A stretch of 64,000 nucleotides of DNA from the NCBI RefSeq assembly GCF_003443615.1, contig NZ_CP031967.1:1550001-1614000 (forward strand). The letters are read 5' to 3'. Shown here piece after piece: positions 20,994 through 38,358 of the stretch. The notes beneath the pieces are model-generated. The model worked only from the letters and a program-made list of their open reading frames with translations, was not told the DNA's origin and ran no database searches. Source of the DNA: Alteromonas sp. BL110 (GTDB taxonomy: Bacteria > Pseudomonadota > Gammaproteobacteria > Enterobacterales > Alteromonadaceae). The stretch's first letter is position 1, and every line of letters starts with the position of its first letter. Both the position numbers and the translations under genes were made by a program.

Positions 20994-21003
20994 GTATTTC
21001 CCC

Positions 21004-23107: not shown

Positions 23108-23128
23108 CGCCACACCACCGCTACTTTT

Positions 23129-23991: not shown

Positions 23992-24005
23992 ACTAAGGAG
24001 TGGTC

Positions 24006-24200: not shown

Positions 24201-24259
24201 GCGTCTTTGGAGGTAGCGGTTAGCTACCTCATTTTTAAGCGTTAAAAGATGAGTTATTA

Positions 24260-24670
24260 ATGAGCCAGAGTACACCTATGAACATAAAGTCTTTTTTTTT
24301 ACTGATTATATATTTGGGCATATACGCTCCTATTTGGGGTGTTTTACTCGCCATTTTTATTCAAACACTAGAAAATCACGATTATGGTTTCGCTTTTCTA
24401 ATCGCTATAGTGTTAGGTCCTCTTCTATTGTTAATCCTTGCCTGTTCTCGATATTCGATGTTTGTAAAAGGGCAAAAGCTCGTCGTCGCTTCTTTTCCTC
24501 AATACATTTCTTTTTCACTCGCGCAAGTTGCTAACGTTACTATCGAGAAAAAGCATATCATCGTTGAGAAAAATAACGGAGCGGTTAAAGAGATATCTTT
24601 TTTGTTCCCACCAAAATACTACATAGACACGAAATCGTGTAGGGAGAGGATTCCAGGCTTGAAGTTGTAG
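24260..24670 (+). CDS. Membrane protein with small soluble domain, candidate immunity protein
   Basis: The 136-residue product has two predicted membrane helices (about 10-32 and 40-63). A soluble part of ~70 residues follows with a beta-strand-like pattern (KGQKLVVASFPQYISFSLAQ, then VTIEKKHIIVEKN), reminiscent of small PH-like membrane domains. I do not recognise a family. It follows the Gly-rich bacteriocin pair by 59 bp in the same direction, so immunity is the best positional guess. Confidence 0.6.
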   Translation: MSQSTPMNIKSFFLLIIYLGIYAPIWGVLLAIFIQTLENHDYGFAFLIAIVLGPLLLLILACSRYSMFVKGQKLVVASFPQYISFSLAQVANVTIEKKHIIVEKNNGAVKEISFLFPPKYYIDTKSCRERIPGLKL

Positions 24671-24714
24671 AGCGAGCAACCGTGCTTATTTTCATAGGCA
24701 TACATTACTCGGCC

Positions 24715-24812
24715 GTACACGTCCGCTAATCCCAGCTAGCGCTCAGAGCGAATATTATCGATACTCAGCTGGCCGTCGAGTGTTTAACGTGCAAGCTTTT
24801 CTCATTGGTTCT
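24715..24812 (-). mobile_element. Short IS66 end fragment
   Basis: It starts with an IS66-like end (CGTCCGCTAATCCCAGCTAGC). After an internal deletion it continues with text parallel to the longer relic at 25494-25545 (CGTCGAGTG...CATTGGTT). Only about 100 bp remain. The fragment directly abuts the 5' side of a bacteriocin core that has lost its leader. Confidence 0.7.
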
Positions 24813-24830
24813 CAGTCGGTATCCAGTACA

Positions 24831-24959
24831 ATGAGGGATATCGGTATGACTGCTCTCAATGGGGCGTGGGCTGGTGCTACCATTGGATCAGAAGCGGGTC
24901 TTGCGGGTTCAGTAGCTTCAGCTGGTGCTGGGTTGTTCATGAATGAGTTTCTGGATTAA
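24831..24959 (+). pseudogene. Leaderless remnant of a Gly/Ala-rich bacteriocin gene
   Basis: From an ATG at 24831 the frame encodes 42 residues, MRDIGMTALNGAWAGATIGS then EAGLAGSVASAGAGLF and a stop. This has the GxxxG-rich look of the neighbouring bacteriocin cores but no GG leader. The frame stays open upstream into the IS66 fragment, so I read it as a precursor whose leader half was lost when the element inserted or was deleted. An intact leaderless peptide is possible but less likely, as no ribosome-binding site precedes the ATG. Confidence 0.6.
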
Positions 24960-25014
24960 GAAACTATTTTTGGGGTCTAGTTTCAAGGCCCTTTTCTTTT
25001 AAATTAGTATTAGC

Positions 25015-25212
25015 ATGCAGAATTTAAATTGGATTGGATTAGGAATTGGCATATTTCTGGGTGGCTCACTTGCTTTAGTTATCACACGAATATTTGGTCT
25101 TAATGTAGGCTTAAATGAAGGTTCAGTTGTATTTATTTTTATGTTGATATTCGGCTTAATCGGCAAAAAAATAGGTGCGGACTTCTCTATAGGTTCAAAG
25201 TCTAAAATCTAA
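25015..25212 (+). CDS. Small two-helix membrane protein, candidate immunity protein
   Basis: The 65-residue product has two hydrophobic helices (about 5-27 and 37-53) and a C-terminus ending SKSKI. It lies 55 bp after the broken bacteriocin remnant in the same direction, which matches the precursor-immunity order seen elsewhere in this island. No family is recognised and the ribosome-binding site is weak. It may be an orphaned immunity gene. Confidence 0.45.
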   Translation: MQNLNWIGLGIGIFLGGSLALVITRIFGLNVGLNEGSVVFIFMLIFGLIGKKIGADFSIGSKSKI

Positions 25213-25230
25213 TGAAAGCAGCAACAGAAT

Positions 25231-25572
25231 GTAAGCGTCCGCTAATCCCACCTAGCGCTTAGCGAATTACCATGGTAGTAGTTGCTCGATATCGTCATTG
25301 GCTCGACCGAGCTCATCCAGGCAAGTCATCACATACTCGAACACATTAGGGTCGTTGGCTTTGGCGGTTTCGATGATGCTGTAGAGCACTGCGCTGGCAT
25401 TCGCACCATTAGCAGTCTGGCTGAACAACCAGTTCTTCCGGCCGATGACGAACGGTTTTATCGCGCGCTCTGCAGGGTTATTGTCGCTGGCGAGGTGACC
25501 ATCGAGTGTGTATCGAACCAGCTTCTGCCATTGGTTTAAGCAGTATTTTATCGCTTCAATGTTAAGTTCTTG
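25231..25572 (-). mobile_element. tnpC: IS66 relic: left end and TnpC C-terminal fragment
   Basis: It begins GTAAGCGTCCGCTAATCCC, a close match to the left end at 18871. The minus strand then encodes the TnpC C-terminus: [37 protein letters not shown] and a final DIEQLLPW before the stop. This copy is less decayed than the one at 18892-19130. The right end is missing and the limit near 25572 is approximate. Confidence 0.85.
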
Positions 25573-25661
25573 AGGTTAGCCTTACCGCTCGTGTGCACCT
25601 TTCTTTTTAATTAATTTACTCAACTAAGAAGGGTCTAATGAATCGCTGGCAATTCCGAGAT

Positions 25662-25871
25662 TTATTTTCTAACAACCGAAAAAAAACCTCGTTCAATCTT
25701 AAGAACTTGACCGCCGCTCAGAAGACGTGAAATACCCCCAAAGAGTAAGCACGTGAACGTTATACTGAACACCACGAAAATAAGATAAACGGGTTTTAAC
25801 CAATCAAACATCAAGAAAAATAAACTACAGATTACTGACAAGCAAAGCGCTGACGCGAAATTTTTTAACAT
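25662..25871 (-). CDS. Small membrane protein, unknown
   Basis: The 69-residue product starts at an ATG preceded by AAGGTGAAGAA on the minus strand, a good ribosome-binding site. Two predicted membrane helices (about 5-22 and 28-50) are followed by a basic tail (IERGFFSVVRK). No family is recognised. It has no adjacent precursor gene on its strand. It resembles the other putative immunity proteins of the island. Confidence 0.5.
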   Translation of the reverse strand: MLKNFASALCLSVICSLFFLMFDWLKPVYLIFVVFSITFTCLLFGGISRLLSGGQVLKIERGFFSVVRK

Positions 25872-26318
25872 TTCTTCACCTTAAAATACTAAATATTAAA
25901 CTCGTTTCGAAATAAACGATGATTGATTTTAGACAGCAAGTCAAACCTTCAAAAAAAACAGAATAATCATTAAAAATCTGAAAGTGAGATCAGATTATTA
26001 CTCTTAAAAAACTGGATGATATGTTTTAATACGTTTTGATAATACTTTTTCTTCTTATCACTTTATTTTAGATACTAAATCTCATAGCCGTTTTAACATT
26101 AAAAATTCAGTAGCCTTAAAATCAGACAGACTTTACTGAGTTTAACCTTGAAGTGATTTAACAAAATCTGAGGAAGTCTGTCTCTGATAGGCAATCAGCA
26201 TCTCAGTGCAGTCACATTGATGACAACAGCTATTTGGAATTACTTATCCAGTCTAGCCCAGATAAGTGATGATGCAGTCACGACAATTGGCTAGTGGTAG
26301 AGTGAAATCGTCAAATTT
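25872..26318. other. AT-rich gene-free segment downstream of the LanB gene
   Basis: It carries two inverted repeats: AGACAGACTT / AAGTCTGTCT (26124-26133 and 26174-26183), and ACTTATC / GATAAGT (26242-26267). The motif TGCAGTCAC is repeated at about 26215 and 26274. These could form the 3' end of the LanB transcript. No coding potential is seen. Confidence 0.45.
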
Positions 26319-29300
26319 TTATTGTTGATAAAAACCGTTCTTCATTTCGTCTACAAATGCCTTTCTACTAGTAAGAGATAGATAAAAACGTCGTAGCAAG
26401 TCATACATAACGAATTCGTGTTCTCGCGTGTACGCGTTGAACAACCGATTATTAAGCATATGTAGTATAGACGTTACCAGCTCATCTTTATTTATACTTG
26501 ATGATCGCAGAGCTGAGCTTGCAGCAGCGACGGCTTGTTCGTATTCACGACCCCAGCTTTCAATCTTAGAGAATAATTCTTGCGGTGTCTCTGCGCCGTT
26601 TTTTTCTTCGGGCCGTAGGACAAAATGAAAATCATTGATTAATACTGATTTTAAGTTCCTATATTTCTCGCCTAATTGCTTTCGTAACTCTACATTCTCG
26701 TTAAACTCCCTTCCAAACGCTTCTCTTAAAGCGTTTACCAAAGCAAGTTTATGAGGCCAGCTGTAACCAAAATAGGTCAGTATTCGGTCAATACAAAGCG
26801 CGGCAGCCCTCCATCGAATATCATCTCCATAAATATGAACCAATGGGATTAACTCGGTAGCTAAGTCACTTTCCAACCTGAAAAGTGTTTCACAGTGTTC
26901 TAGTAGCTGTTCGCCTCCATAGCGCTCTAACTCTCTCTGGTAAGTAAAAAGCTCGACACGATCGACCTCATTGTTGTCAATAAAGGGTTGAAGATGCTGG
27001 TGTATACGGGGCAAAAGCTTCCCATATAGCACCTCAGGCTCACCTAGAAACCTAATTCTCAGATGCCAATCAGGATCACCAAAACGAATGAAAAACCATT
27101 TATCAAATAGTGATGTCGACGATTTAATAAATGACGCCAGGTGATAAGCTAATACACCTTCAACTTGATTATTGCCGGAATACACTTTAATGCTCATCCA
27201 TTTTGAACCTGGCGAGTAGCTTCGCGGTTTGTTGTCAATCATTGTATGGCGTTGATTTAACCGAATGGCTTTATAAGAAGCCGCTTTTTTGTTCACCAAA
27301 GGGACGATAATCTCATTAGCGTATCCCTCACCCTTTTCGTTTTTGACTGATGAAACATACTGATTGGGTAGTGACTCTTTAAGAACTACTTCTTTGAACA
27401 TTCTCGATTCTTCAACGAGCATAGTAAAAAGTAAGGGATTTTTGAGGTCGAGGGTCAGTGCGTTGTCACCAACAGAAAAGACTACAACATCATCAAGCTG
27501 ATACTTTTCTTTCAACGCATTATATCGGTTATCACAATATTTGTTTTTCTCAAGAACGCTGGATAAAGCGGAGTGGGGAATACGCCACGTTTTTTCGTGC
27601 AGCACGATATCATCCAACATTACTCTTGGTGTAAAACAATATGTCGAAAATACATCGGGCATGATATTTGTGGGTATTGAGTAATATTGATACTGAATCG
27701 AGCACAAAAATCGGTATACGCTTAAACTTCGATTCGAAAAGTTATGGGCATTCGACATTCTTGGTATCACTTGCTTTTTCAGTCTTTCAGACCATAACTT
27801 TATTCTATTTTCTTCCACCCAAACATATAGATCGTTTACTGAGATAGAATATTCATTTTCAATATCGCTATCAGCCATAAATACAATCTCATAATCCCTT
27901 AAGCGCGGACGCGCAATCACGTTACCCGGACGTCCATCCGGCATGTGAACGACTTCGGCAAAAACGACATCCTCAGAGTGAAGCTCTTCTTGCTTAAGGT
28001 GTACTTTAACGTGTTCTTTCAAATTTTCATCGAGATGACAAAACCTACCGATTAGATTTGCCGCCGAGGGACCATAAACTGATATAAGTTTGATTAACTC
28101 TTTGTCGTCATTTTTAAACATAGAGACAACCGCGCCGTAAGAATATGGAAGCTTTGTATTGTCTTGTGTTGAGTCAATCGCATCTGCTAGTTCTTTCGAA
28201 GACAATGTAAGTGTTTCTGTGTTCTGATAATTCGGAAGGCTCATCTTTTGCAAGATTAGCTTATGCATAGGGCTCAATTCATTGGTTTTACGACTTGATA
28301 AACGACTTCGTAGATTTAAATTTGATAGCAAGCTCGATTCATAACCCGTATCTTCTGAGAAACCAATACCAGATTCATCGTCTAATACTGCTGTTAAAGG
28401 GATGAGCTGCTGATCAAAGCGTTTAGTAAACTGTGAAATAAAATTAGAAAATGGATTATGTGTGACCGCACTTGCTCGAGAGAGCAACTCAATGGCCTGC
28501 TGAATTGTGGAGGTAACATCCACCGCTAATTCACTCTTAACCATTTCAGGTGCTATATCTACCTGAAACAGTTTATTCTCTTGAATATTGATTGGTAAAT
28601 CACGCAGCGTAGTAATTACGTTTTTATAGTCTTCTATGCTGGCGCAATCGTCTTCATCAATACGTTGCAATAATTCCACACCTTTTTTTAACCCATCATA
28701 TTCGGCAAATGGTTCAAGTGAGGCTAGCAATGCTTTATCAGGTGATGAAGCAGTTAAAGACAGTGGTAAGTGTGGAATAATGATAGACTCATCTATCAGT
28801 TGCTTCACAAACGCTTCAAGTTCTGCGACGGAGAAGCTTTCGTATTGTGCATGTAATTTCAGCGTTATGTCGTCGAAAGAAACTGGCAAGTCGCAAAACG
28901 ATAATACAAAGTCTAGAATATCAGTTTTTTGAACGGATGAGAGTCTATACTGCTTTGCATCTTCGCTGTCATATGACTCGATGTAACGGATCGTCTCAGC
29001 GCAAGCAGCTATGGAAGGGTTCGCGCGATAAGATAGATTTTTAACCTCTCTTTTTGATACGGCAGCTTTAAGCTGACTAAGCATCAATATATCAAACCGT
29101 GTTTTTCTCGTATATCTACTATAAGCGGGTACTATTAATTTTGTATGCTCCGATGGCTTACCCATGCTTATGCCAGAAAACAGCCCAAAGGGCGTAGGTC
29201 TTGACGACATACGAATAAAGTACTTAATCAGGGTATTTCGTATTTTTTTGCCTTGCTTAGAGTGCGGCCGCTTTGACCATATGGCAATACGCGAATGCAA

Positions 29301-29468
29301 AGATGGGCTAGCAATATATAAGCTTTCCATTACCTGTTCGCGATTCAGCCAATTTAATAAGAGTTCGTCTGCATCATTAGACGCGATAAACAGTGGCTTG
29401 AGAAGATCAAAAGGTAATCTTGGTATACGAAGAACGAAAAAACCATCAGGAGCACTAGTCTGCTTCAT
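26319..29468 (-). CDS. Full-length LanB-type lantibiotic dehydratase
   Basis: The 1049-residue protein contains both halves of a LanB enzyme. The N-terminal glutamylation domain has KYFIRMSSRPTPFGLFSGIS near residue 90, the family signature. The C-terminal elimination (SpaB_C/thiopeptide-type) domain has KWFFIRFGDPDWHLRIRFLG and ELFTYQRELERYGGEQL near 810-880. LanB uses glutamyl-tRNA to activate Ser/Thr of a precursor and then eliminates glutamate to give Dha/Dhb. The gene is divergent from the precursor at 30156, about 690 bp away. No LanC cyclase is in the window, and the precursors nearby lack core cysteines, so the product may be dehydrated but not lanthionine-bridged. Confidence 0.93.
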   Translation of the reverse strand: MKQTSAPDGFFVLRIPRLPFDLLKPLFIASNDADELLLNWLNREQVMESLYIASPSLHSRIAIWSKRPHSKQGKKIRNTLIKYFIRMSSRPTPFGLFSGISMGKPSEHTKLIVPAYSRYTRKTRFDILMLSQLKAAVSKREVKNLSYRANPSIAACAETIRYIESYDSEDAKQYRLSSVQKTDILDFVLSFCDLPVSFDDITLKLHAQYESFSVAELEAFVKQLIDESIIIPHLPLSLTASSPDKALLASLEPFAEYDGLKKGVELLQRIDEDDCASIEDYKNVITTLRDLPINIQENKLFQVDIAPEMVKSELAVDVTSTIQQAIELLSRASAVTHNPFSNFISQFTKRFDQQLIPLTAVLDDESGIGFSEDTGYESSLLSNLNLRSRLSSRKTNELSPMHKLILQKMSLPNYQNTETLTLSSKELADAIDSTQDNTKLPYSYGAVVSMFKNDDKELIKLISVYGPSAANLIGRFCHLDENLKEHVKVHLKQEELHSEDVVFAEVVHMPDGRPGNVIARPRLRDYEIVFMADSDIENEYSISVNDLYVWVEENRIKLWSERLKKQVIPRMSNAHNFSNRSLSVYRFLCSIQYQYYSIPTNIMPDVFSTYCFTPRVMLDDIVLHEKTWRIPHSALSSVLEKNKYCDNRYNALKEKYQLDDVVVFSVGDNALTLDLKNPLLFTMLVEESRMFKEVVLKESLPNQYVSSVKNEKGEGYANEIIVPLVNKKAASYKAIRLNQRHTMIDNKPRSYSPGSKWMSIKVYSGNNQVEGVLAYHLASFIKSSTSLFDKWFFIRFGDPDWHLRIRFLGEPEVLYGKLLPRIHQHLQPFIDNNEVDRVELFTYQRELERYGGEQLLEHCETLFRLESDLATELIPLVHIYGDDIRWRAAALCIDRILTYFGYSWPHKLALVNALREAFGREFNENVELRKQLGEKYRNLKSVLINDFHFVLRPEEKNGAETPQELFSKIESWGREYEQAVAAASSALRSSSINKDELVTSILHMLNNRLFNAYTREHEFVMYDLLRRFYLSLTSRKAFVDEMKNGFYQQ

Positions 29469-30155
29469 TGTAAAACACCGTTTATTCCATTATGTAACGG
29501 TAAATTAGCAATTAAAATAGCATCATTAAAGCCTGCCTCATAAACAAATAAGTTAAATAATGATGTACTTGCTTTAAATCTTGTATTAAGTGCGGACTCA
29601 TATAATCTTACGCATCACACGACTGCCTTTACAGCATCTTCTACCAACGTATAGCAACTGCTTACATGCTACCCTTTCGACAATTTATACATAGAAACGT
29701 ATCAGAGGATTACAGAGGTTGAAAGCTGCTTTATCTTTAGCGATAGAGATGAGCTCATTTTCGGCTAACTTTTGCAGTCTTATTGAAAAACTATGTAAGT
29801 AATGCGCTTGAGAGCTGAATTCGGGGCATAAAAAAGCCTCAACATGGCGGTGTCGAGGCTTTCCTTACAAGTGCGAGATTTTGCAAATGTAATAAGGAAT
29901 TTAAATAGTAAGGTCTACATTCCCTTTTTTCAAGGCCATTCTTATCTTATGTCAACATTATTAAAACTTAGCAAAAAATAAAAAGCTATATATAACAAAA
30001 ACATAAATCACAATCTTATTTTTATTTTCTAACATCTTCATAAGCGACTTTTCCTCTCAATTCGTTAATCATCATTTTGCGGTGCATGTGATTTGCGATG
30101 CTTATAGAATGCACTCTCACAAAATATTTTCAATATAAAACGATAAGGAAATACT
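29469..30155. other. Divergent regulatory region between the LanB gene and the export operon
   Basis: About 690 bp, AT-rich, with no convincing gene. It must hold promoters for both directions. It contains an orphan copy of the precursor-leader element at 29833-29899. From about 30130 it shows GATAAGGAAATACT, the ribosome-binding context of the precursor at 30156. Confidence 0.5.
29833..29899. promoter_or_regulatory. Orphan hairpin plus ATGTAATAAGGAA box
   Basis: A hairpin (AAAGCCTC...GAGGCTTT, 29833-29862; on the minus strand it ends in a T-run and could terminate) is followed by ATGTAATAAGGAA at 29887-29899. The box is identical to the one preceding three precursor genes in this island. 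No precursor start codon follows here, so this looks like the leader of a lost precursor gene or a regulatory remnant. Confidence 0.6.
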
Positions 30156-30365
30156 ATGGCACACAACAACCAACCAACGCTCATGCTTAATAAAACAACA
30201 TTGAAGAACTTAAGTTTAGACGGTGCGGTAATTCCCAGAGAGGCAACAAGATCCGTTGTTGGAGGGACAAATGACAAAGAACAAGTCGACGGTTTTTACA
30301 GACAAGAAAATGTGCGAGCCGCGTCGACCAATATTACCTTTAGCTCTACATATCCACGGCTTTAA
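30156..30365 (+). CDS. RiPP precursor, cysteine-free, probable LanB substrate
   Basis: The 69-residue peptide has a long leader with LMLNKTTLKNLSLDG (residues 9-23); LSLD resembles the FNLD-type box that LanB enzymes recognise. The leader ends TRSVVGG (GG at 36-37). The 32-residue predicted core has seven Ser/Thr (T38, S57, T58, T61, S63, S64, T65) and no cysteine. TAAGGAAATACT gives a good ribosome-binding site. It heads the accessory-HlyD-ABC operon and faces the LanB gene. Being the LanB substrate is inferred from position and leader form. Confidence 0.72.
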   Translation: MAHNNQPTLMLNKTTLKNLSLDGAVIPREATRSVVGGTNDKEQVDGFYRQENVRAASTNITFSSTYPRL

Positions 30366-30370
30366 AAGAA

Positions 30371-30934
30371 ATGAAGACAATGCCTTTAATAACCGTGACA
30401 GCTGCGCTTAGTACAATTGTTTCCGGGTTTACTAATGGCACAGAAGTCCAGCTATTTAAACCAAGCGCAGCCGTTGTTCTGGCAAGAAAGGGCGGAGATA
30501 TAGACGACATATTGGCGCAAGTGGGAGACGTGTTGGAAAAAGGCGATGCTCTTATTCTTGTGCGAGGAGGAGACGTTAGCAGCGTTATCAAAGCCCCTCA
30601 ACGAGGTGAGTTGAAGCGCTATGGCTCCAATGTAAAGGTAGACAAGCACCTGCAAGCTGGAGATTTCGTAGCAGTGTTGCAAACAAAGTACGTTGACGGC
30701 GTTATTAGTTTGGATGTCAATCCACAAATAACCGATCAACTAAGTATAGGAAAGTACTGCTGCATTGTTGTTAACGAGGAATCATTTACAGTTCAAGTAA
30801 GCGATGTCACGAAGCATGACGACAGATACTTTCTCTACTTTTCATCGCAAGACCAGTTGTCAGAATTAATGGTTCTTCTTGAATCTACAAAACCGCAGGA
30901 ATTAGATATTTCATTTCAATTGAGCCAGAAATAA
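30371..30934 (+). CDS. Small biotinyl/lipoyl-like (HlyD-type hairpin) protein, accessory of the peptide operon
   Basis: The 187-residue product has no clear transmembrane helix. Residues about 30-105 resemble a barrel-sandwich (biotinyl/lipoyl) domain as in HlyD adaptors: ILAQVGDVLEKGDALILVRG then SSVIKAPQRGELKRYG and HLQAGDFVAVLQ. The rest is beta-rich. It lacks the lysine motif for biotin/lipoyl attachment. It starts 6 bp after the precursor stop, so the two are probably coupled. A second ATG at 30380 is possible. It could be a periplasmic or cytosolic partner of the exporter. I cannot name a family with certainty. Confidence 0.55.
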   Translation: MKTMPLITVTAALSTIVSGFTNGTEVQLFKPSAAVVLARKGGDIDDILAQVGDVLEKGDALILVRGGDVSSVIKAPQRGELKRYGSNVKVDKHLQAGDFVAVLQTKYVDGVISLDVNPQITDQLSIGKYCCIVVNEESFTVQVSDVTKHDDRYFLYFSSQDQLSELMVLLESTKPQELDISFQLSQK

Positions 30935-31003
30935 CTATTTGAAATAAAGCGAAAGTGAAAAGGTTAACTGTTCAAGTTATACCGGCACGCTGAGGATTAA
31001 AAT

Positions 31004-31348
31004 ATGACAGTTAACGATTTTTTTAAACACTACTACGATGTTATTTGTAACGGCGACTTAAATGCATTGGACGAGCTTTATCATAGTGATTCCCCTTTTC
31101 TGGCTAATGTAAAAGCGCAGTATGAGTCAATTCGCCAACAGCTTGAGATGACCATTGAAGTGCTCTCTATTGAGCTGGTCGCCAAGCAAAATGACCTACT
31201 AGTTATCCGCGATAAAATTAATTTTCAAGGAAAGCAGGGAGCACAGGTCATGTCTAACCAATCGGAAAATTTGCATGTAATGACTCGAAAGCCCGACCAA
31301 GATTGGAAGGTTCATAGTACTGCATGCTTAAGAGTAAAAGAGGCGTAA
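31004..31348 (+). CDS. NTF2/SnoaL-like small protein
   Basis: The 114-residue product fits the NTF2-like cone fold: an N-terminal helix pair with FFKHYYDVICNGDLNALDEL, followed by alternating strands ending DQDWKVHSTACLRV. GAGGATTAAAAT before the ATG is a good ribosome-binding site. The gene lies between the lipoyl-like gene and hlyD in the same direction. NTF2-like proteins act as small enzymes or binding scaffolds, and the role here is unknown. No cleavable signal is seen. Confidence 0.65.
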   Translation: MTVNDFFKHYYDVICNGDLNALDELYHSDSPFLANVKAQYESIRQQLEMTIEVLSIELVAKQNDLLVIRDKINFQGKQGAQVMSNQSENLHVMTRKPDQDWKVHSTACLRVKEA

Positions 31349-31353
31349 GCAAA

Positions 31354-32598
31354 ATGGCTAACTTGTTTAGAAAGGAAGCCATTGCACATCAAGGGCAAAG
31401 GCTAGACGGTGAAGTAACACTTGCTACTCATATGTCTTTCAGTATTGTCGCATTTTTATTGGTTTCAGTAGTCTTAATTTGTATTGCTTACTTGTTTTGG
31501 GGTGAGTATCACAGAAAAGAAGTAGTGCCTGGGTATTTAAGACCCACAACCGGATTAAGCAAGGTCTACGCTATCGCACCGGGACTTGTAGATGAAGTTT
31601 ATGTGGAAGAAGGTGATGTTGTAAAAAAAGGGCAGCCACTTGCCCGAATTAGAATGGATCGACAATTGAGTTCGGGAAAAGGTGCCAACGATACCATCAT
31701 ACAAGAGTTAGTAATACAGAAAGAACTGATTAAGAATAATATCGAGCACGAGCAACAGCTTTATCAGGCAAACAAGAAACGACTACAGAGCCAGAAGAAG
31801 AACACCTCAGCAATGTTCGAACAAGCCTTGTCACAACGAACACTATTAAAGGAAAGGGTTAAATTAAGTCAAAATAAGATAGACGATATTAAGGCACTCA
31901 TTGAACAAGGCTTCGCATCCCAAAGAGAGCTAGAAAATCAACAAGATTCATTACTCGCAATTAAACAACAGCTCGAAGACGTCCAGTCTAAGATTCTTTC
32001 AACAAAAGACAATCTCAGCCAGTTAGATTACCAGTACGAACAGCTTCCTGTAGAACACGAGGATAAAATCTCGAAGCTTAAGTCACAACTTGCAGGAATC
32101 AATCAGCAAATATCACAAGCTGATTCACAACGTAGCTTTGAAATAGTTAGCAACAAAGCCGGTGAGGTAACAAACTTACTCGTCAATAGTGGGATGATGG
32201 CTAATACTAATCAGCCCATCATGACAATACTACCCGTTGAGGCTTCACTCGAAGCTGTCCTTTACGTTCCCACCCGAGCTTACGGTTTTGTTAGTACTGG
32301 TCAGCAAACGCGCATTCGTTATCAGGCCTTCCCTTATCAAAGATTTGGTATTTATGAAGGTGATATTACGGAAGTTTCCAAAGCAGTTATTTTACCAAAT
32401 GAAGCCTCTTTACCTGTTAGTTTTCAGGAACCCGTATACCAAGTAGTCGTTACACTTAAAAAGCAGGGTGCCATGGCTTACGGCGTTACTGTTCCTCTAC
32501 AGGCTGGAATGCTGCTCGAGGCCGATATAATGGTTGATAAACGCAGTTTATTCGAATGGCTTCTGGAACCCATCTACAGTATTAAGGGAGCCGTATAA
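31354..32598 (+). CDS. HlyD-family periplasmic adaptor of the peptide exporter
   Basis: From the ATG at 31354 the product has 414 residues (an upstream ATG at 31324 would overlap the preceding gene). It has a short cytosolic N-terminus, one membrane helix (about 25-50), a lipoyl half-motif (VDEVYVEEGDVVKKGQPLAR), a long coiled-coil hairpin (about 115-250), the second lipoyl half and a beta-barrel domain. This is the adaptor layout of type I and C39 peptide exporters. It shares TAATG with the ABC gene downstream (stop and start overlap at 32598). An outer-membrane TolC must be encoded elsewhere. Confidence 0.92.
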   Translation: MANLFRKEAIAHQGQRLDGEVTLATHMSFSIVAFLLVSVVLICIAYLFWGEYHRKEVVPGYLRPTTGLSKVYAIAPGLVDEVYVEEGDVVKKGQPLARIRMDRQLSSGKGANDTIIQELVIQKELIKNNIEHEQQLYQANKKRLQSQKKNTSAMFEQALSQRTLLKERVKLSQNKIDDIKALIEQGFASQRELENQQDSLLAIKQQLEDVQSKILSTKDNLSQLDYQYEQLPVEHEDKISKLKSQLAGINQQISQADSQRSFEIVSNKAGEVTNLLVNSGMMANTNQPIMTILPVEASLEAVLYVPTRAYGFVSTGQQTRIRYQAFPYQRFGIYEGDITEVSKAVILPNEASLPVSFQEPVYQVVVTLKKQGAMAYGVTVPLQAGMLLEADIMVDKRSLFEWLLEPIYSIKGAV

Positions 32599-34814
32599 TG
32601 GAAAATCCAAGACATCTCCTGAAGTTTGGTGGCTCGCGAAAGCTACCAATGATCATGCAAACAGAGGCTGCTGAATGCGGGCTAGCGTGCCTTGCAATGG
32701 TTGCGGGCTATCACGGGTACAAGACCGATCTTACACATCTACGTCAGAGCTTTTCCATATCGTTAAAAGGCGCCAGCTTAGAAGAGCTGATGGAGATTGC
32801 AGACAAAATGCATATGAGCTCCCGCGCACTCAGACTTGAGCTTGAGCATTTACATCAGCTGAAAACGCCATGTTTACTACATTGGGATATGAACCACTTT
32901 GTAGTCCTTAAAAAAGTGAGTAAGCACCATGTCGAAATCCTCGACCCCGCATTAGGTACTCGACGTTACACCAAAGCAGTGTTTTCCAAGCATTTTACCG
33001 GAGTTGCATTAGAGCTTTCTCCTACCAAAGAGTTCAAGTCCCAAGATAGCCGTGTAAATATGAAGCTATCGGATTTTTGGGACTCCATCTCTGGATTAAA
33101 GTCTACCCTTCTAAAAGTATTTGTACTGTCAATACTGTTGCAAGTCTTTGCCATTGCAAGCCCCTACTACATGCAGCTTGTTGTTGACGAGGTTATCCTT
33201 AGCTACGACCAAAATTTGCTTACTGTTCTGGCAATAGGGTTTGCCATACTTATGCTCATAGAAATGATTACTGGGGCAGTGAGAAGTACACTGTTACTTC
33301 ACTTTGGAAACTTATTGAGTATACAGCTTGGTGCAAACCTGTTTCACCACTTAGTCAGGCTGCCCTTGCAATATTTCGAAAAAAGACATATCGGAGATGT
33401 TGTATCACGATTCGGCTCTTTACAACAGGTTAAGAGCCTTTTGACCGAAGGTGTTATTGCAGCCCTTATCGATGGCCTTATGGCGATCACAACACTAGTA
33501 ATGATTTTTATTTACAGTCCCAAATTGAGCTTAGTTGTTCTAATTGCCATGCTCATTTATGCCGCTTTTAGAATTGCGATGTACAAGCCTCTTAGGCAGA
33601 TGTCTGAGGAAGTCATTGTTAGTCAAGCAAAAGAACAATCCAACTTTATGGAAACAATAAGGGGTATTCAGACAATTAAATTGTTCGGTCGTGAAGTACA
33701 ACGCCAAGGTGTATGGCACAACAAGTTTGCTGACTCTTTAAATGCTGGTATCAGAGTTGGGCATTTAAACATTGGTTACCAAGCTTTCAATAGCTTTATC
33801 TTTGGCATCGAAAACGTTCTGGTTGTTTACTTCGCCGCAATGCTTGTAATGAGTGGTGACCTTACAGTTGGTATGCTATTCGCTTTCATGTCATACAAAC
33901 GTCAGTTTACAGAAAAAGCAGCTAACCTAATTGAAAAACTCATTGAATTTAAGATGCTTAACCTGCATTTCAACCGATTGGCAGATATATCGCTGACCGA
34001 AAAAGAGCAGAATCTTACAGGAAGCAGAACGTCTCGCCCCCTGGAAGGTACGCTAAATTTGAAAAACGTGACTTATCGCTACAATGAAAAAGACCGCCCC
34101 GTTTTCTCTAACTTAAACGTAACCATCAACGCCGGCGAATCCGTGGCGCTTGTAGGCCCTTCAGGGTGTGGAAAAACCACTCTGGCGAAAGTCATGCTAG
34201 GTTTATTCTCTCCTGAGTGCGGGCAAGTTGAAGTAGATGGAATAGATATAAAGCAAATGGGCTTGGGTGAATATAGAAAGCAAGTTGGCGCCGTTATGCA
34301 AGATGATCAGCTTCTATCAGGTTCAATCTCGGATAATATTTCTTTTTTTGACCCTCAAAAAGATATGGAACGCGTTGAGTGGGCGGCTAATATCGCAGCC
34401 ATAGATAAAGATATTAGCCAAATGACCATGGGCTACAATACCTTGGTGGGTGACATGGGAGCAGCTTTATCTGGCGGCCAAATTCAGCGCTTATTGCTCG
34501 CTAGAGCACTTTACAGAAAACCAAAAATTTTATTTATGGATGAGGCCACTAGCAATTTAGATACGACGCTTGAGGCATCTGTAAATAATGCTATTAAATC
34601 GCTAGATGTAACCCGAATTATTATTGCCCATCGCCCCGAAACAATTGCCAGTGCAGACCGAGTTTTAGAGCTAAGGTATGGAAAGCTAATAGAACGCGTA
34701 GAACCTACACACTACAAAGATGATGAAAGCTCAACATCTACTGTTCTTAATATCGACGCTGAGCCGACCACGGGCGAATATGAACCACTCGGTTCAGATT
34801 TTGAATTAGCTTAG
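32598..34814 (+). CDS. Bacteriocin ABC exporter with N-terminal C39 peptidase
   Basis: The 738-residue protein has an N-terminal C39 peptidase with MQTEAAECGLACLAMVAG and an apparent triad Cys27, His100, Asp116. A six-helix membrane domain (about 165-440) and an ATPase domain follow. The ATPase has Walker A GPSGCGKTT, signature LSGGQIQRLLLARAL and Walker B ILFMDEATSNLD. It cleaves after GG leaders while exporting. It is the only such exporter in the window, and ten nearby precursor or precursor-like genes exist, nine of them with intact GG leaders, so it probably serves several peptide classes. It is coupled to hlyD. Confidence 0.95.
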   Translation: MENPRHLLKFGGSRKLPMIMQTEAAECGLACLAMVAGYHGYKTDLTHLRQSFSISLKGASLEELMEIADKMHMSSRALRLELEHLHQLKTPCLLHWDMNHFVVLKKVSKHHVEILDPALGTRRYTKAVFSKHFTGVALELSPTKEFKSQDSRVNMKLSDFWDSISGLKSTLLKVFVLSILLQVFAIASPYYMQLVVDEVILSYDQNLLTVLAIGFAILMLIEMITGAVRSTLLLHFGNLLSIQLGANLFHHLVRLPLQYFEKRHIGDVVSRFGSLQQVKSLLTEGVIAALIDGLMAITTLVMIFIYSPKLSLVVLIAMLIYAAFRIAMYKPLRQMSEEVIVSQAKEQSNFMETIRGIQTIKLFGREVQRQGVWHNKFADSLNAGIRVGHLNIGYQAFNSFIFGIENVLVVYFAAMLVMSGDLTVGMLFAFMSYKRQFTEKAANLIEKLIEFKMLNLHFNRLADISLTEKEQNLTGSRTSRPLEGTLNLKNVTYRYNEKDRPVFSNLNVTINAGESVALVGPSGCGKTTLAKVMLGLFSPECGQVEVDGIDIKQMGLGEYRKQVGAVMQDDQLLSGSISDNISFFDPQKDMERVEWAANIAAIDKDISQMTMGYNTLVGDMGAALSGGQIQRLLLARALYRKPKILFMDEATSNLDTTLEASVNNAIKSLDVTRIIIAHRPETIASADRVLELRYGKLIERVEPTHYKDDESSTSTVLNIDAEPTTGEYEPLGSDFELA

Positions 34815-34874
34815 CTGAAACTAATTTGGTAGCGAGTGAGAATACTCGTAACTAAATGTGCAACAACTGCAAAA

Positions 34875-34920
34875 TTGCTCTGATTCAAAGAGCAAAACTA
34901 TTAAATGTAATAAGGAAAAA
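34875..34920 (+). promoter_or_regulatory. Leader hairpin plus ATGTAATAAGGAAAAA box (copy 1)
   Basis: The stem TTGCTCT / AGAGCAA (34875-34895) is followed by ATGTAATAAGGAAAAA (34905-34920), directly before the peptide gene at 34923. AAGGA is the ribosome-binding site. ATG TAA TAA just upstream is a start-stop trinucleotide set that is conserved in all copies. Confidence 0.65.
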
Positions 34921-34922
34921 TA

Positions 34923-35057
34923 ATGGAAACTCTTAAACAAAATGAAATCAAAAATGTTTCAGGCGGTGCGTTATTCGCTGATAACCCAATATTGTTCGAA
35001 CAACACTATGGGTATCCGATGCCACATTGGGCACTCTTCGCGCTTAACCTTAACTAA
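34923..35057 (+). CDS. Short double-glycine precursor peptide after the exporter
   Basis: This 44-residue peptide (too short for most ORF cut-offs) starts after AAGGAAAAATA. Its leader METLKQNEIKNVSGG is a clear 15-residue GG leader. The 29-residue core is aromatic and rich in His, Tyr and Pro (FEQHYGYPMPHWALF) with no Cys, Ser or Thr. It cannot be a LanB substrate in the usual sense, and its few acidic residues make a graspetide unlikely. It may be an unmodified class II peptide or a pheromone-like signal. It ends 37 bp before a terminator. Confidence 0.72.
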   Translation: METLKQNEIKNVSGGALFADNPILFEQHYGYPMPHWALFALNLN

Positions 35058-35756
35058 ATTTCGGTCTTACACTGACAACTATTAATTGTCCTTTAAAGGG
35101 CGAAAGCATTTTCGCCCTTTCTTACATATCCGCCATCATTCAGATTTTATTTAACTAACTCAACAATACTTCCTGTTTACAATCCTAAATTAAACAGCAA
35201 TAGCTTTTCCCGCCATTTAAGATCTCATTGTTCAATTTAACTAAATATTCATCTTAAGTAATGAGGAATTACGAACGTACAACTTCCAATGAGAAGTTAA
35301 CACATGAGCGTTTAAATAAAGTCCCTAAATTCCTCTAAAAATTAAAATCTCCGTACCATTTTCTACTCCCAAGCCTTGCCATAATCAGTCAAATTTATTA
35401 TCAATATTTGTTTAATAGATCGATATAAACATCGATTAAGCACTTCTCTACACTAGCTACAAGAATTGCTATTTTCTATGAGAAATATATTGTTGAAAAA
35501 ATATTCTTAGCAAACCATACCTTTTAAAAAATAGCATTATCGAAAGATAACAATTAGATATATCTGTCTGAAATTACTAGATATTTACCATTTAGGCAGA
35601 GTTTGATTTTTTCCTTACCTTGAATAAATAATAGCTTCACGAATAGGAAAACTAAATTAGAAAACGTTAGCGGGCATGCTCAGCTTAATAAGCTTAACTG
35701 ATTAAGGGCTTGTCCACATCGAAACCAATATTGAAAACTTGAGAAGGGAAACGTTC
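35058..35756. other. Intergenic segment between the exporter unit and the graspetide unit
   Basis: It contains the terminator at 35095-35120 and then about 600 bp of very AT-rich sequence with no gene, presumably including the promoter of the ATP-grasp gene. A small palindrome AGCTTAATAAGCT lies near 35680. Confidence 0.5.
35095..35120 (+). terminator. Terminator of the exporter-peptide operon
   Basis: 11-bp perfect arms AAAGGGCGAAA / TTTCGCCCTTT with a 4-nt loop follow the peptide gene; only a short T-rich tail (TTTCTT) is present. Confidence 0.75.
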
Positions 35757-36719
35757 ATGCACCACGTCATACTAGGCCACCAGAAAGACCTGCACGCTAC
35801 TTATATGCTTGACGCGATGCGAAAAAAAGGGCTAAACGCACATCTATTGCAGTCAAGTGACTTTCCTCGCTGTATTCAATTGGCTTACTCACCGTCAAAT
35901 GGTTTTGGCCATTTAATTTCAAGTGATGGCAATAAATTGGCTTTCGAAGAAGTTAAGTCTGTCTACTGGCGTAATTTTTGTGGCGTATCAGATGAAGCAC
36001 ATCGAGGCAATTTTGGCACAGCTGAATATATTTCGGCAAAAGATAGCATGGCATGTTTGCGTAGCTGGTTCAATGTTTCTGAAAACACACTATGGGCTAA
36101 TAGTTGGCAAGCCTATGAGCACCACAAAGAAAAACCTTGGCAGTTATCGAAGGCAAAAAAATTAGGCCTAAACATTCCAAGAACATTAGTGACTAACGAT
36201 ATTCGCGAGATTAAAAGTTGGTATACATCTTTAGAAAAAAGCATATTCAAACCTGTCACAGGCGGCACACACACAGAGATTTTGTGTGCCGCCCATTTTG
36301 ACAGTGCTCACATTACCGATGCGTTATCAAAAGCGCCAATAACTGTCCAGGAATATATTGAAGGCACTAACATTCGAACATTTGTTATCGGTGACCAAGT
36401 TTTCTCTGCGGAAATACGTAGTGATAGTGTTGATTTTCGCGAGGATAAAAATACGGATGTCATTCCAATCGAAACACCGAAAGATATTGCCTTACAGGCT
36501 ATATCAATTATGAAAACCCTGCATATGACTTGGACTGCTATTGATTGGAGAAGAGACAAGAGCGGTGTTTACTACTTCCTAGAGGCGAATCCGTCGCCTA
36601 TGTTTTATGGGTTTGAAGTTCAGACTGGCATTTCAATCACAGACCATCTGATTTCGTTCTTAGCTAAGGGCAAACCAGGGTTTTCACAAGTAAAAGATAT
36701 GCATCGAGTTACGGCTTAG
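35757..36719 (+). CDS. Graspetide (microviridin/marinostatin-type) ATP-grasp ligase
   Basis: From the ATG at 35757 (GAAGGG 9 bp upstream; a TTG at 35739 is the alternative) the product has 320 residues. It is an ATP-grasp ligase like MdnB/MdnC/MvdD. The ATP-binding strand is SIFKPVTGGTHTEI. VQEYIEGTNIRTFVIGDQVF follows, then VDFRED, a DxR-type segment seen in these ligases. The metal-binding end is YYFLEANPSPMF. These enzymes phosphorylate core Glu/Asp side chains and form esters or amides with Thr/Ser/Lys. Two matching precursor genes follow directly. There is only one ligase and no acetyltransferase. Confidence 0.9.
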   Translation: MHHVILGHQKDLHATYMLDAMRKKGLNAHLLQSSDFPRCIQLAYSPSNGFGHLISSDGNKLAFEEVKSVYWRNFCGVSDEAHRGNFGTAEYISAKDSMACLRSWFNVSENTLWANSWQAYEHHKEKPWQLSKAKKLGLNIPRTLVTNDIREIKSWYTSLEKSIFKPVTGGTHTEILCAAHFDSAHITDALSKAPITVQEYIEGTNIRTFVIGDQVFSAEIRSDSVDFREDKNTDVIPIETPKDIALQAISIMKTLHMTWTAIDWRRDKSGVYYFLEANPSPMFYGFEVQTGISITDHLISFLAKGKPGFSQVKDMHRVTA

Positions 36720-36757
36720 ATGCAACTAAGTTTCAGTATAATTTGCTGAAAAAAAAA

Positions 36758-36806
36758 GCTTTCGGAAAGAAAGCATCATTAACTTTAAACATGTAATAAG
36801 GAAAAA
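36758..36806 (+). promoter_or_regulatory. Leader hairpin plus ATGTAATAAGGAAAAA box (copy 2)
   Basis: The stem GCTTTC / GAAAGC (36758-36774) is followed by ATGTAATAAGGAAAAA (36791-36806), 3 bp before the ATG of the first graspetide gene. It has the same order and spacing as the copies at 34875 and 37126. Confidence 0.65.
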
Positions 36807-36809
36807 ATT

Positions 36810-36998
36810 ATGCATCCATTTGCATTAAATCAAAAAGCAACAGCATTAGTAACTGGCGGGGCTAATGTAACTACACCTAACGATGGAAAAGCACTTAACG
36901 ATAGAAAAATTGGTGTTTTCCCCGAGTTTCCACCTATTTACACAACCATGGCTCTCGGTGAAGAAGGCGGGGAGTACCCACCTGTTATTACTCGTTAA
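36810..36998 (+). CDS. Graspetide precursor 1
   Basis: The 62-residue peptide has leader MHPFALNQKATALVTGG; HPFALN recalls the PF-containing helix that graspetide ligases bind, and LVTGG (13-17) is a GG cleavage site. The C-terminal core PPIYTTMALGEEGGEYPP holds Thr45, Thr46, Glu51, Glu52 and Glu55. This is the Thr-Thr...Glu-Glu arrangement whose side chains are ester-linked in this RiPP class. Many graspetides inhibit serine proteases. It lies 90 bp after the ligase gene. Confidence 0.88.
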   Translation: MHPFALNQKATALVTGGANVTTPNDGKALNDRKIGVFPEFPPIYTTMALGEEGGEYPPVITR

Positions 36999-37125
36999 TT
37001 TGCAATAACTTTCAAAATTAGCGATATAGTTTTAATTAAATACTCATTCGAATTCTACAAAAATTGCTCCCTAGTATTTGCTCGATGAGAAAAGAAGTGA
37101 TCCATAGTGATCACGTGTGCCGAAA

Positions 37126-37178
37126 GATAAGTCTTCTGGCGGGAAGGCTTATCGTAAACAAAATGTAATAAGGAAAAA
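37126..37178 (+). promoter_or_regulatory. Leader hairpin plus ATGTAATAAGGAAAAA box (copy 3)
   Basis: An 11-bp stem GATAAGTCTTC / GAAGGCTTATC (one G-T pair, loop TGGCGG; 37126-37153) is followed by ATGTAATAAGGAAAAA (37163-37178), 2 bp before the ATG of graspetide gene 2. It is the strongest hairpin of the set. Confidence 0.7.
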
Positions 37179-37180
37179 CT

Positions 37181-37390
37181 ATGCACCCATTTGCATTGAA
37201 TAAACAAGCAATAAACTTAGTCACTGGTGGATCGAACGGTTTTAAGCTAACTGACGGCCAAACTTTTGACGATAGACTTACTGGCGTTGCGCCTCCACCT
37301 AGATACCCTGTATTTAAATATTTTCCTATCTATACCACTATGGCAATAGGGGAAGAAGGTGGTGAATATCCGGTTGACACATATCGGTAA
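37181..37390 (+). CDS. Graspetide precursor 2
   Basis: The 69-residue peptide is a paralogue of the preceding one: leader MHPFALNKQAINLVTGG, a variable middle with extra Pro/Tyr (VAPPPRYPVFKYFP), then the core PIYTTMAIGEEGGEYP. Thr52, Thr53, Glu58, Glu59 and Glu62 occupy the same spacing as in precursor 1. The leader and ring region are conserved and the spacer and tail diverge. That suggests one ligase modifies both, with different flanks setting the target. It is followed by its own terminator. Confidence 0.88.
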   Translation: MHPFALNKQAINLVTGGSNGFKLTDGQTFDDRLTGVAPPPRYPVFKYFPIYTTMAIGEEGGEYPVDTYR

Positions 37391-37433
37391 AACGACTCCT
37401 CGAATATTTAAAGCGCATACACCGAAGATTTGG

Positions 37434-37464
37434 CGGTAATTAAGAGGCAGTTACCGTCTTTTCT
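37434..37464 (+). terminator. Terminator of the graspetide genes
   Basis: The stem CGGTAA / TTACCG is followed by TCTTTTCT, 44 bp after the graspetide 2 stop codon. Confidence 0.65.
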
Positions 37465-37512
37465 CAGACAGGAAAAGTATGCGTAATTAAAAAGTTTACC
37501 GATAAGTTGTGT

Positions 37513-37545
37513 AAAAGAGAAGCTGAAAATTAAGCTTCTCTTTTT
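37513..37545. terminator. Bidirectional terminator between the island and gmk
   Basis: 9-bp arms AGAGAAGCT / AGCTTCTCT are flanked by AAAA on the left and TTTTT on the right. It terminates plus-strand island transcripts and the minus-strand gmk transcript, uncoupling gmk from anything downstream. Confidence 0.88.
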
Positions 37546-37710
37546 GTACCCTGTAATTTTCGCTGCATAAACTTATTATAGCAACTCAGTTTTTCATCTT
37601 AATTGGGTTTCACGCTACAATGAAGCTAACTACGGCTTTAGGTCGAGCATCAACTGAAGATTGCTCAATCGAAGATATTTACCTTTTTATTAATTGAATC
37701 ATTTCTAATT

Positions 37711-38358
<648 letters not shown>

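What the first reader, a model, noticed from the sequence alone, without database searches (positions are those of the whole stretch)
26319..37390. Hybrid RiPP locus: LanB dehydratase and graspetide ligase around one C39 exporter
A full LanB gene, a Cys-free precursor, an HlyD/C39-ABC exporter, a further GG peptide, an ATP-grasp ligase and two graspetide precursors lie within 11 kb. All four precursors end their leaders in GG. One exporter-peptidase could therefore mature both dehydrated and ester-crosslinked peptides, or one peptide could even meet both enzymes. I know of no described cluster combining these two modification types with a shared C39 exporter.
Basis: partly seen in the sequence, partly recalled or inferred. 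Interest (0 to 1): 0.9.

Follow-up and report, generated by a model that had tools for sequence, protein, structure and literature searches.

The report
Three-class peptide island, one exporter
A marine bacterium carries a 22.7-kb DNA island that appears to make three chemically different kinds of small secreted peptides (dehydrated, ester-looped and unmodified) beside a single cutting-and-export machine, and similar combinations occur in related bacteria.

Summary
In detail: every gene named lies where stated, and all four leaders end in GG. The 11 kb is the right half of a 22.65-kb island (15,060-37,714), absent at that site in 6 of 6 same-genus relatives examined. The island holds nine plausible GG-leader peptides (one LanB-type, two graspetide-type, five class II-like, one unassigned) and one C39 exporter.

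The association recurs. In 395 family genomes, all 7 with a window-like graspetide ligase also carry LanB and the same exporter type ('hub': NTF2-like protein, HlyD, C39-ABC), closely linked in several. Most LanB genomes (28 of 35) lack that ligase. The Cys-free peptide has a LanB-substrate leader (E 1e-9); in the hub loci read, such peptides precede a truncated HlyD-like protein that was seen only in LanB genomes.

No LanC was found in this genome. I infer a cyclase-free dehydrated peptide exported by the hub, alongside plesiocin-like graspetides (TTMA[LI]GEE) and unmodified peptides. Exporter sharing is inferred; four relatives keep a separate exporter beside LanB/LanC. Nothing suggests that one peptide meets both enzymes. 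A 2026 paper mentions lanthipeptide dehydratases in some graspetide clusters, so this is a new variant of known kinds.

The parts
15060..37714 (.). 22.65-kb RiPP/bacteriocin island between genes recognised by eye as spoT/rpoZ and gmk
   Evidence: the flanks are contiguous (about 60 bp apart) in 6 of 6 same-genus relatives examined
15398..17611 (+). ToxR-like regulator, 737 aa, with a C-terminal part that may be a beta-propeller
   Evidence: PF00486 E 8e-17; Peptidase_S9_N propeller E 2e-4, below cut-off; proteins similar by eye stand beside the precursor / mini-HlyD genes in related hub loci
18391..18639 (+). GG-leader peptide, 82 aa, leader class unassigned
   Evidence: GG pattern; weak in both leader profiles, E 1.4 and 7.1
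20844..20993 (-). class II-like GG peptide
   Evidence: class II leader profile E 3.3e-4
21004..21147 (-). class II-like GG peptide
   Evidence: class II leader profile E 7.8e-5
23785..23991 (+). class II-like GG peptide
   Evidence: class II leader profile E 9.3e-5
24000..24200 (+). class II-like GG peptide (Bacteriocin_IIc-like)
   Evidence: PF10439 E 8.5e-6, 26.1 bits against a cut-off of 27.1; class II leader profile E 3.1e-5
26319..29468 (-). full-length class I lanthipeptide dehydratase LanB, 1049 aa
   Evidence: PF04738 and PF14028; profile matches NisB 4wd9/6m7y E about 1e-51 and 9g04 E 7e-100
30156..30365 (+). pepA: LanB-type precursor, core of 32 residues, no Cys, 7 Ser/Thr
   Evidence: LanB-leader profile E 1.1e-9, next window ORF 2.7; core counts
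30371..30934 (+). mini-HlyD: truncated barrel-sandwich protein, hydrophobic N-terminus by eye
   Evidence: weak Biotin_lipoyl match, E 4e-4, below cut-off; model pLDDT 79, Foldseek hits BesA, CusB, MexA, AcrA and BCCP with low TM-scores except BCCP
31004..31348 (+). NTF2/SnoaL-like protein, marker of the hub exporter
   Evidence: model pLDDT 93, NTF2-like folds; match in 12 of 395 family genomes at E<=1e-8
31354..32598 (+). HlyD-family adaptor (start chosen; longest frame from 31324)
   Evidence: PF13437 over its cut-off; TIGR01843 E 1.5e-44, below its cut-off
32598..34814 (+). C39 peptidase-ABC exporter of the hub clade
   Evidence: PF03412, PF00664, PF00005; hub set SH-aLRT 99 on a quick tree
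34923..35057 (+). pepB: class II-like GG peptide, 44 aa
   Evidence: class II leader profile E 1.3e-4
35095..35120 (+). possible intrinsic terminator closing the pepA-to-pepB operon
   Evidence: read by eye; not listed by the scan
35757..36719 (+). ATP-grasp graspetide synthetase, 320 aa
   Evidence: TIGR04187 E 1.3e-41, TIGR04185 E 2.7e-28, below curated cut-offs; nearest PDB 7drm E 4e-46
36810..36998 (+). graspetide precursor G1, core motif TTMALGEE
   Evidence: graspetide-leader profile E 5.5e-4; core Thr and Glu invariant in the 11 precursors aligned
37181..37390 (+). graspetide precursor G2, core motif TTMAIGEE
   Evidence: graspetide-leader profile E 5.3e-5
34903..34917 (+). shared 5' element AAATGTAATAAGGAA (pepB); further copies at 36789 (G1, one mismatch), 37161 (G2) and 29885 (no gene recognised after it)
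   Evidence: 5 matches genome-wide with at most 1 mismatch, 4 of them in this locus

Best explanation
This is a horizontally acquired peptide-antagonism island built round one promiscuous C39 exporter (the hub: NTF2-like protein, HlyD, C39-ABC). Three kinds of GG-leader precursor feed it. (1) LanB glutamylates and eliminates Ser/Thr in the Cys-free pepA. With no LanC and no Cys, the product stays a linear peptide rich in Dha/Dhb; the mini-HlyD encoded with pepA helps its secretion or its producer tolerate it. (2) The ATP-grasp ligase closes ester rings in the TTMA[LI]GEE segment of G1 and G2, giving plesiocin-like protease-inhibitor graspetides. (3) Five class II-like peptides, pepB among them, leave unmodified. 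The C39 domain cuts all of them after GG during export, and the ToxR-like regulator probably controls expression. Shown: genes, leader classes, no detectable LanC, island borders, recurrence. Inferred: the chemistry, exporter sharing, horizontal gain rather than loss elsewhere, mini-HlyD role, regulation and bioactivity.
For: Genes and domains. Three leader classes that separate in profile tests. No LanC match in the genome. Of 12 hub genomes, the 8 with LanB have a pepA-like peptide before a mini-HlyD and the 4 without LanB have neither in the stretches read (Fisher p 0.002, not corrected for kinship). A mini-HlyD profile hit 16 of 395 genomes; one hit lies in a full-length HlyD frame, and the other 15 genomes have LanB; its 14 seeds came from LanB genomes, at least 8 of them in the draw, so the informative part is the absence of a mini-HlyD hit in the 360 genomes without LanB. 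Window-like ATP-grasp: 7 of 7 genomes carry the hub marker and LanB. P. aliena and Colwellia TT2012 also show no LanC and keep LanB about 3-10 kb from hub genes. One island. A 15-base 5' element shared by pepB, G1 and G2. Core Thr and Glu invariant in the 11 graspetide precursors aligned.
Against: Another strong C39 exporter exists in the genome. Four LanB+LanC relatives keep a separate LanB-linked exporter although the hub is present. The graspetide genes lie 699 bp downstream, after a possible terminator, so probably a separate transcript. Colwellia has the LanB-hub part without the ligase; T. actiniarum has its LanB at least 1.4 Mb away with its own LanC. The co-occurrence is not corrected for kinship: five of the seven ligase genomes are one genus. 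pepA-like leaders of three of the eight hub genomes score weakly in the LanB-leader profile (G343 E 0.002, G314 0.018, G239 3.4), and G314's core has two Cys. LanC-less LanB is not more clustered on the tree than chance. No expression or mass data exist.
Confidence: 0.6

Rival explanations
1. Two independent clusters side by side in an insertion hot spot. The graspetide half is served by another exporter, such as the second C39-ABC next to the genome's other graspetide ligase, and the hub exports only pepA and the class II peptides.
For: Probable separate transcripts; second graspetide/C39 locus at 2.23 Mb; C39-ABC next to graspetide ligases in 16 of 19 same-genus loci read; LanB-hub without ligase in Colwellia.
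Against: Window-like ligases co-occur with the hub marker in 7 of 7 genomes; the hub set differs from the 7 exporters beside other graspetide ligases on a quick tree; shared 15-base element at pepB, G1 and G2; a single island.
Confidence: 0.23
2. pepA is not a LanB product in this strain. LanB is a remnant of a former LanB/LanC cluster or acts on precursors elsewhere, and pepA is secreted unmodified.
For: LanC and Cys are both missing; LanB is divergent from pepA's operon and in its own transcription unit.
Against: LanB is full length with residues invariant in 20 aligned LanBs; pepA has the LanB-type leader; pepA-like peptide with mini-HlyD tracks LanB across the genomes read (with the seed bias stated above); a related 66-aa peptide also has a Cys-free core.
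Confidence: 0.13
3. One precursor is modified by both enzymes, giving a true dehydrated and ester-crosslinked hybrid molecule.
For: Co-localisation of both enzymes; every precursor has Ser/Thr. A graspetide-type precursor in relatives (L110, also in L138, no LanB seen there) matches the LanB-leader profiles weakly (E 0.06 and 0.23).
Against: Among the window's ORFs the LanB-leader profile does not list G1 or G2 and the graspetide-leader profile does not list pepA, at E up to 10.
Confidence: 0.04

Closest known systems
Class I lanthipeptide clusters with C39 export (Pseudoalteromonas, Rheinheimera, Colwellia LanB-LanC-HlyD-C39 loci)
   Same: LanB mostly 39-45% identical in these genera; LanB-type leader ending in GG; HlyD plus C39-ABC in most of the loci read
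   Different: No LanC found in the whole genome, Cys-free precursor, exporter of another clade (hub), mini-HlyD and NTF2-like genes, graspetide genes alongside
Group 2 graspetides (plesiocin, PsnB)
   Same: TTxxxxEE-type core (motif recalled); nearest solved ligase 7drm (taken to be PsnB from memory); single ligase
   Different: One motif per precursor instead of repeats, MHPFxL..GG leader, linked LanB; plesiocin's repeats are described in PMC13097080 (introduction read) and PMC12291112 (passages)
Graspetide loci with a C39-ABC transporter
   Same: C39/ABC tops the list of partners of ATP-grasp loci by weighted frequency (Makarova 2022, PMC8939145, passages)
   Different: No LanB mentioned in the passages read; here the exporter also lies with a LanB-type precursor
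Graspetide BGCs containing lanthipeptide dehydratases (Carter 2026, PMC13097080)
   Same: Same gene combination mentioned in one sentence (passage)
   Different: Shown only in a supplementary figure not held here; organism, precursor type, LanC and exporter unknown to me
Class II microcin/bacteriocin C39 systems
   Same: GG leaders, C39-ABC plus HlyD, glycine-rich peptides such as 24000-24200
   Different: Precursors of two further, modified classes share the island

Membership tests
class I lanthipeptide system | full-length LanB with glutamylation and elimination domains | tested here: met
   PF04738 and PF14028, NisB alignment
class I lanthipeptide system | LanA precursor with LanB-recognised leader | tested here: met
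   leader profile E 1.1e-9; recognition itself untested
class I lanthipeptide system | Cys in the core for (methyl)lanthionine | tested here: not met
   pepA core has no Cys
class I lanthipeptide system | LanC cyclase | tested here: not met
   no PF05147 match in the genome; the same search matched beside LanB in five related genomes and in 1 of 14 control genomes
graspetide | ATP-grasp synthetase of the MvdC/MvdD/TIGR04187 type | tested here: met
   TIGR04187 E 1.3e-41, significant but below the curated cut-off; PDB 7drm E 4e-46
graspetide | precursor with Ser/Thr/Lys preceding Asp/Glu in a conserved core | tested here: met
   invariant Thr and Glu in the 11 precursors aligned; three further MHPF-leader precursors with other cores (L127 at 10564 and 11313, L132 at 9317) were not in that alignment
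graspetide group 2 (plesiocin) | TTxxxxEE motif, hairpin-like bicyclic topology | tested here: inconclusive
   motif present once in each precursor, motif definition recalled; topology not testable
marinostatin/microviridin precursors | match to a curated precursor family or PFFARFL leader | tested here: not met
   no Pfam or NCBIfam hit at E <= 1 for G1 or G2; PFFARFL (named in PMC7823629, passage) absent by eye
C39 peptidase-containing exporter | C39, ABC transmembrane and ATPase domains | tested here: met
   nearest PDB chains 8vp3 and 4ry2, 'ABC-type bacteriocin transporter'
shared-exporter hybrid cluster | the same exporter processes both modified classes | not testable with these tools
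   needs an exporter deletion with mass spectrometry

The most novel reading that the evidence does not exclude
LanB, the Cys-free pepA family and the dedicated mini-HlyD form an undescribed RiPP class: cyclase-free, dehydroamino-acid-rich peptides matured by a C39 hub that also exports graspetides and unmodified bacteriocins. Repeated absence of LanC in hub-bearing lineages would mean that the dehydrated linear peptide is the selected product.
Probability: 0.33. Interest if true: 0.8.

Novelty: new variant of a known kind. Interest (0 to 1): 0.6.

Why it matters
If true, one secretion machine matures three RiPP/bacteriocin chemistries, which is useful for combinatorial peptide engineering. 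It would also show that class I dehydratases have natural substrates without Cys, a group that at least one published mining scheme discards by design: Walker et al. 2020 drop ORFs whose estimated core has no Cys (PMC7268733, passage seen). The recurrent set in Pseudoalteromonas and relatives makes both ideas directly testable in marine bacteria.

Tried and rejected
Considered and rejected: (a) accidental neighbours (speak against it); (b) marinostatin-type graspetide as the class: a short motif is similar (recalled), but there was no family hit, and the TTxxxxEE pattern with the nearest solved ligase fits better; (c) one peptide for both enzymes; (d) pepB as a LanB or graspetide substrate (class II leader).

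Led nowhere or limited: promoter scan (13 found against 20.9 expected; terminators 9 against 6.6). Paper searches for LanB without LanC and for LanB or dehydratases in graspetide, Pseudoalteromonas or C39 context gave, in the listings and in the passages I opened, no description of this arrangement beyond the one sentence in PMC13097080; I read no paper whole. The SI of that paper was not readable; Ramesh 2021 is not held. The LanB contig scan kept the best 80 of 225 loci, so distant LanBs are under-sampled. The thresholds (ATP-grasp E<=1e-85, LanB 1e-100, NTF2-like 1e-8, mini-HlyD 1e-10) were my choices; the ATP-grasp one was set after seeing a gap between 4e-90 and 3e-77, and G115 and G123 were checked for LanB only at 1e-100. 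At E<=1e-55, 7 of 25 ligase genomes have LanB, 2.2 expected. G115's hub is incomplete (C39 fragment only). Rows left out of the LanB tree: L076, L077, L079-L096, L098-L102. Both trees are quick ones with long branches flagged.


Full report
What is there. All claimed genes are present at the stated coordinates. LanB is intact: both Pfam domains, full length. Residues invariant in the 20 aligned LanBs include R86, R90, D126, R475, R795, R849 and H1003; the printed part of the alignment with NisB shows several of these motifs shared, and their catalytic roles are recalled, not tested. pepA is followed after 5 bp by a truncated HlyD-like protein, then after 69 bp by an NTF2-like protein, 5 bp, HlyD, and a 1-bp overlap with C39-ABC: an operon by spacing. 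pepB follows at 108 bp. Then come a possible terminator and a 699-bp gap before the ATP-grasp gene, G1 and G2, so the graspetide genes are probably a separate transcript.

The island. I compared the window with the gmk region of six same-genus genomes (six chosen from the 39 relatives with a gmk hit). Window positions of about 15,057 and 37,715 are neighbours, about 60 bp apart, in 6 of 6. Everything between is therefore an island in this strain or a loss elsewhere; LanB matched in 1 of 60 relatives, the strain itself, which favours gain. The island also holds a ToxR-like regulator (15398-17611), IS66 fragments, a TraB-family gene and five further GG peptides. A GG-leader pattern finds 10 of 162 small ORFs inside and 0 of 281 outside; nine of the ten look like genes.

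Three leader classes. Profiles built without window sequences sort the island's peptides: LanB-type, pepA alone (E 1.1e-9, next 2.7); graspetide-type, G1 and G2 alone (5.5e-4, 5.3e-5, next 0.28); class II, the peptides at 24000, 21004, 23785, 34923 and 20844 (E 3.3e-4 or better, next 1.1). The LanB-type profile came from 37 distinct leaders of Cys-containing precursors found at the loci held. The 18391 peptide fits none clearly. The seeds of the graspetide and class II profiles (13 and 33 leaders) were picked by regular expression, which narrows them.

Relatives, hub. In 395 family genomes (drawn evenly from a larger group): ATP-grasp E<=1e-55 in 25, of which 7 form the window-like set at E<=1e-85; LanB E<=1e-100 in 35; the NTF2-like hub marker E<=1e-8 in 12. 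All 7 window-like ligase genomes, this one included, are in both other sets. Positions (organisms named by matching contig lengths): P. aliena (G239) has hub C39, ligase and LanB within about 15 kb of one contig. G314 (NC201) has LanB, LanC, a LanB-linked C39, ligase and hub within 33 kb. P. rubra S2676 (G396) has ligase and LanB 12 kb apart on one contig, the hub on another. G343 and G378 have them on different contigs (unresolved). T. actiniarum (G119) has the ligase about 6 kb from the hub but LanB at least 1.4 Mb away. In addition P. luteoviolacea MMG020 (L027) has ligase, graspetide-type precursor, LanB-type precursor, C39, LanC and LanB in 12 kb. Protein searches point to further shared contigs by equal length only. 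Of the 80 LanB loci kept by the contig scan, a ligase match lay inside the fetched stretch in 2 (one at 50%, one at 24% identity; at most 10 kb each side), so LanB without a ligase is the commoner state.

Relatives, pepA and mini-HlyD. Of the 12 hub genomes, the 8 with LanB have a pepA-like peptide before a mini-HlyD; the 4 without a LanB match (G011, G034, G115, G123) have neither in the stretches read. By the LanB-leader profile the pepA-like leaders score E 8e-5 or better in five of the eight genomes (G000, G358, G119, G378, G396) and weakly in three (G343 0.002, G314 0.018, G239 3.4); those three were named by position and by eye. Cores are Cys-free in 7 of the 8; NC201's has two Cys. The mini-HlyD profile hits 16 of 395 genomes at 1e-10; one hit (G274) lies in a 433-aa frame, taken to be a full HlyD, and the other 15 genomes all have LanB. 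The 14 seeds of that profile all came from LanB genomes and at least eight belong to genomes of the draw, so much of the 15 of 15 is by construction; what it adds is that no mini-HlyD was hit in the 360 genomes without LanB. Cys-free LanB-type precursors precede a mini-HlyD at further LanB loci (L025, L028, L040, L043, L068); at L059 the two precursors there have one and three Cys. None of these counts is corrected for kinship (12 of the 15 are one genus). The model of the mini-HlyD (pLDDT 79) resembles membrane-fusion proteins and, over its lipoyl-like part, BCCP domains.

LanC. No PF05147 match in this genome, in P. aliena or in the Colwellia TT2012 genome; found beside LanB in G314, G343, G378, G396 and G119. 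On a quick LanB tree of 66 rows the LanC-less label needs at least 4 changes. One of these is Shewanella abyssi, read on stretches that start 0.2 kb before LanB, so its LanC may be unseen, and the label is no more clustered than chance (66 of 500 shuffles as low). LanC absence thus looks recurrent; in the three genomes where it was searched genome-wide and not found, LanB lies about 1-10 kb from hub genes.

Exporter. On a quick C39-ABC tree of 70 rows the hub exporters form one set of 11 (SH-aLRT 99; one of the 11, L144, I had mislabelled 'other'). They lie apart from 45 of the 51 LanB-locus exporters (one set, 100; the other six, three from Bacteroidota, lie elsewhere) and from 7 beside other graspetide ligases, which fall in two sets. 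This genome has four C39 matches, two strong: the hub, and one beside its other ligase at 2.23 Mb. P. aliena is informative: LanB stands just upstream of glmU (named by eye) with no LanC, whereas LanC-bearing relatives have HlyD-C39-LanC-LanB downstream of glmU; its hub ends 10 kb before LanB. It is as if LanB had lost its cyclase and exporter while the hub took over. That is an inference; P. aliena has one other C39 match, untested for clade.

Shared 5' element. AAATGTAATAAGGAA occurs 3 times exactly and once with one mismatch in this locus, and once more (one mismatch, window 52001) in the rest of the 4.46-Mb genome; the reversed control gave 1. Copies precede pepB, G1 and G2; the fourth lies between LanB and pepA with no gene recognised after it. 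This argues for shared origin or regulation, but part of it is probably a ribosome-binding site.

Chemistry expected. G1 and G2 carry TTMALGEE and TTMAIGEE. In the 11 precursors aligned (2 here, 9 picked from relatives) the second Thr and the first Glu are invariant, while the relatives mostly read [IV]TxxIPE[DGN]. Three further MHPF-leader precursors (two in L127, one in L132) have other cores and were not aligned. I expect two nested esters here and perhaps one in relatives; the TTxxxxEE motif of plesiocin is recalled. pepA's core has 7 Ser/Thr in 32 residues and no Cys; a relative (P0242, 54% identical) keeps a Cys-free core and the pattern TxxTFxSxxPR.

Novelty. Known separately: LanB/LanC loci with HlyD and C39 exporters (seen here) and graspetide/C39 loci (PMC8939145, passages). 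Carter 2026 mentions dehydratases in some graspetide clusters (PMC13097080, introduction and passages). In the searches listed under Tried and rejected I found no description of the cyclase-free Cys-free LanB product, the mini-HlyD partner, or the three-class hub; most subscription papers are not in that library. I therefore call it a new variant of a known kind.

Noticed in passing
G000:C1:2218500-2238400 (L137): A second graspetide ligase (31% identical) with its own HlyD and C39-ABC elsewhere in the same genome; many same-genus genomes carry a similar ligase-exporter pair.
   Followed up: partly
L131:4073-5725, L127:5420-7494, L144:14673-17190, left ends of L145 and L146: Arrays of short, often nearly identical GG-leader peptide genes (MKELN..GG and MREL..GG) downstream of the hub exporter in relatives.
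   Followed up: partly
L023:2320-2911, L032:2151-2982, L052:2429-2998, L066:2323-2928: P. luteoviolacea-type LanB loci carry several LanB-type precursors, nearly all with a Cys-free core that holds a conserved SSDTSVT segment, another apparent Cys-free LanB substrate family, here beside LanC.
   Followed up: no
window 19129-20002: Fragments of an IS66-type transposase in the middle of the island, suggesting stepwise assembly.
   Followed up: no
window 24260-24670 and 24780-24959: A small possible membrane protein next to the class II-like peptide pair (perhaps immunity) and a glycine-zipper-like ORF without a GG leader.
   Followed up: no
window 29833-29862: A bidirectional terminator-like hairpin between the divergent LanB and pepA genes (by eye), next to the orphan copy of the 15-base element: perhaps the remnant of a lost peptide gene.
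   Followed up: no
L131:6776-9189: Transposase-like genes (by eye) between the hub peptide array and the graspetide genes in P. aliena.
   Followed up: no
L110:1193-1378 (same as L138:9220-9405): A graspetide-type precursor whose leader resembles the LanB-type leader weakly (E 0.06-0.23).
   Followed up: no
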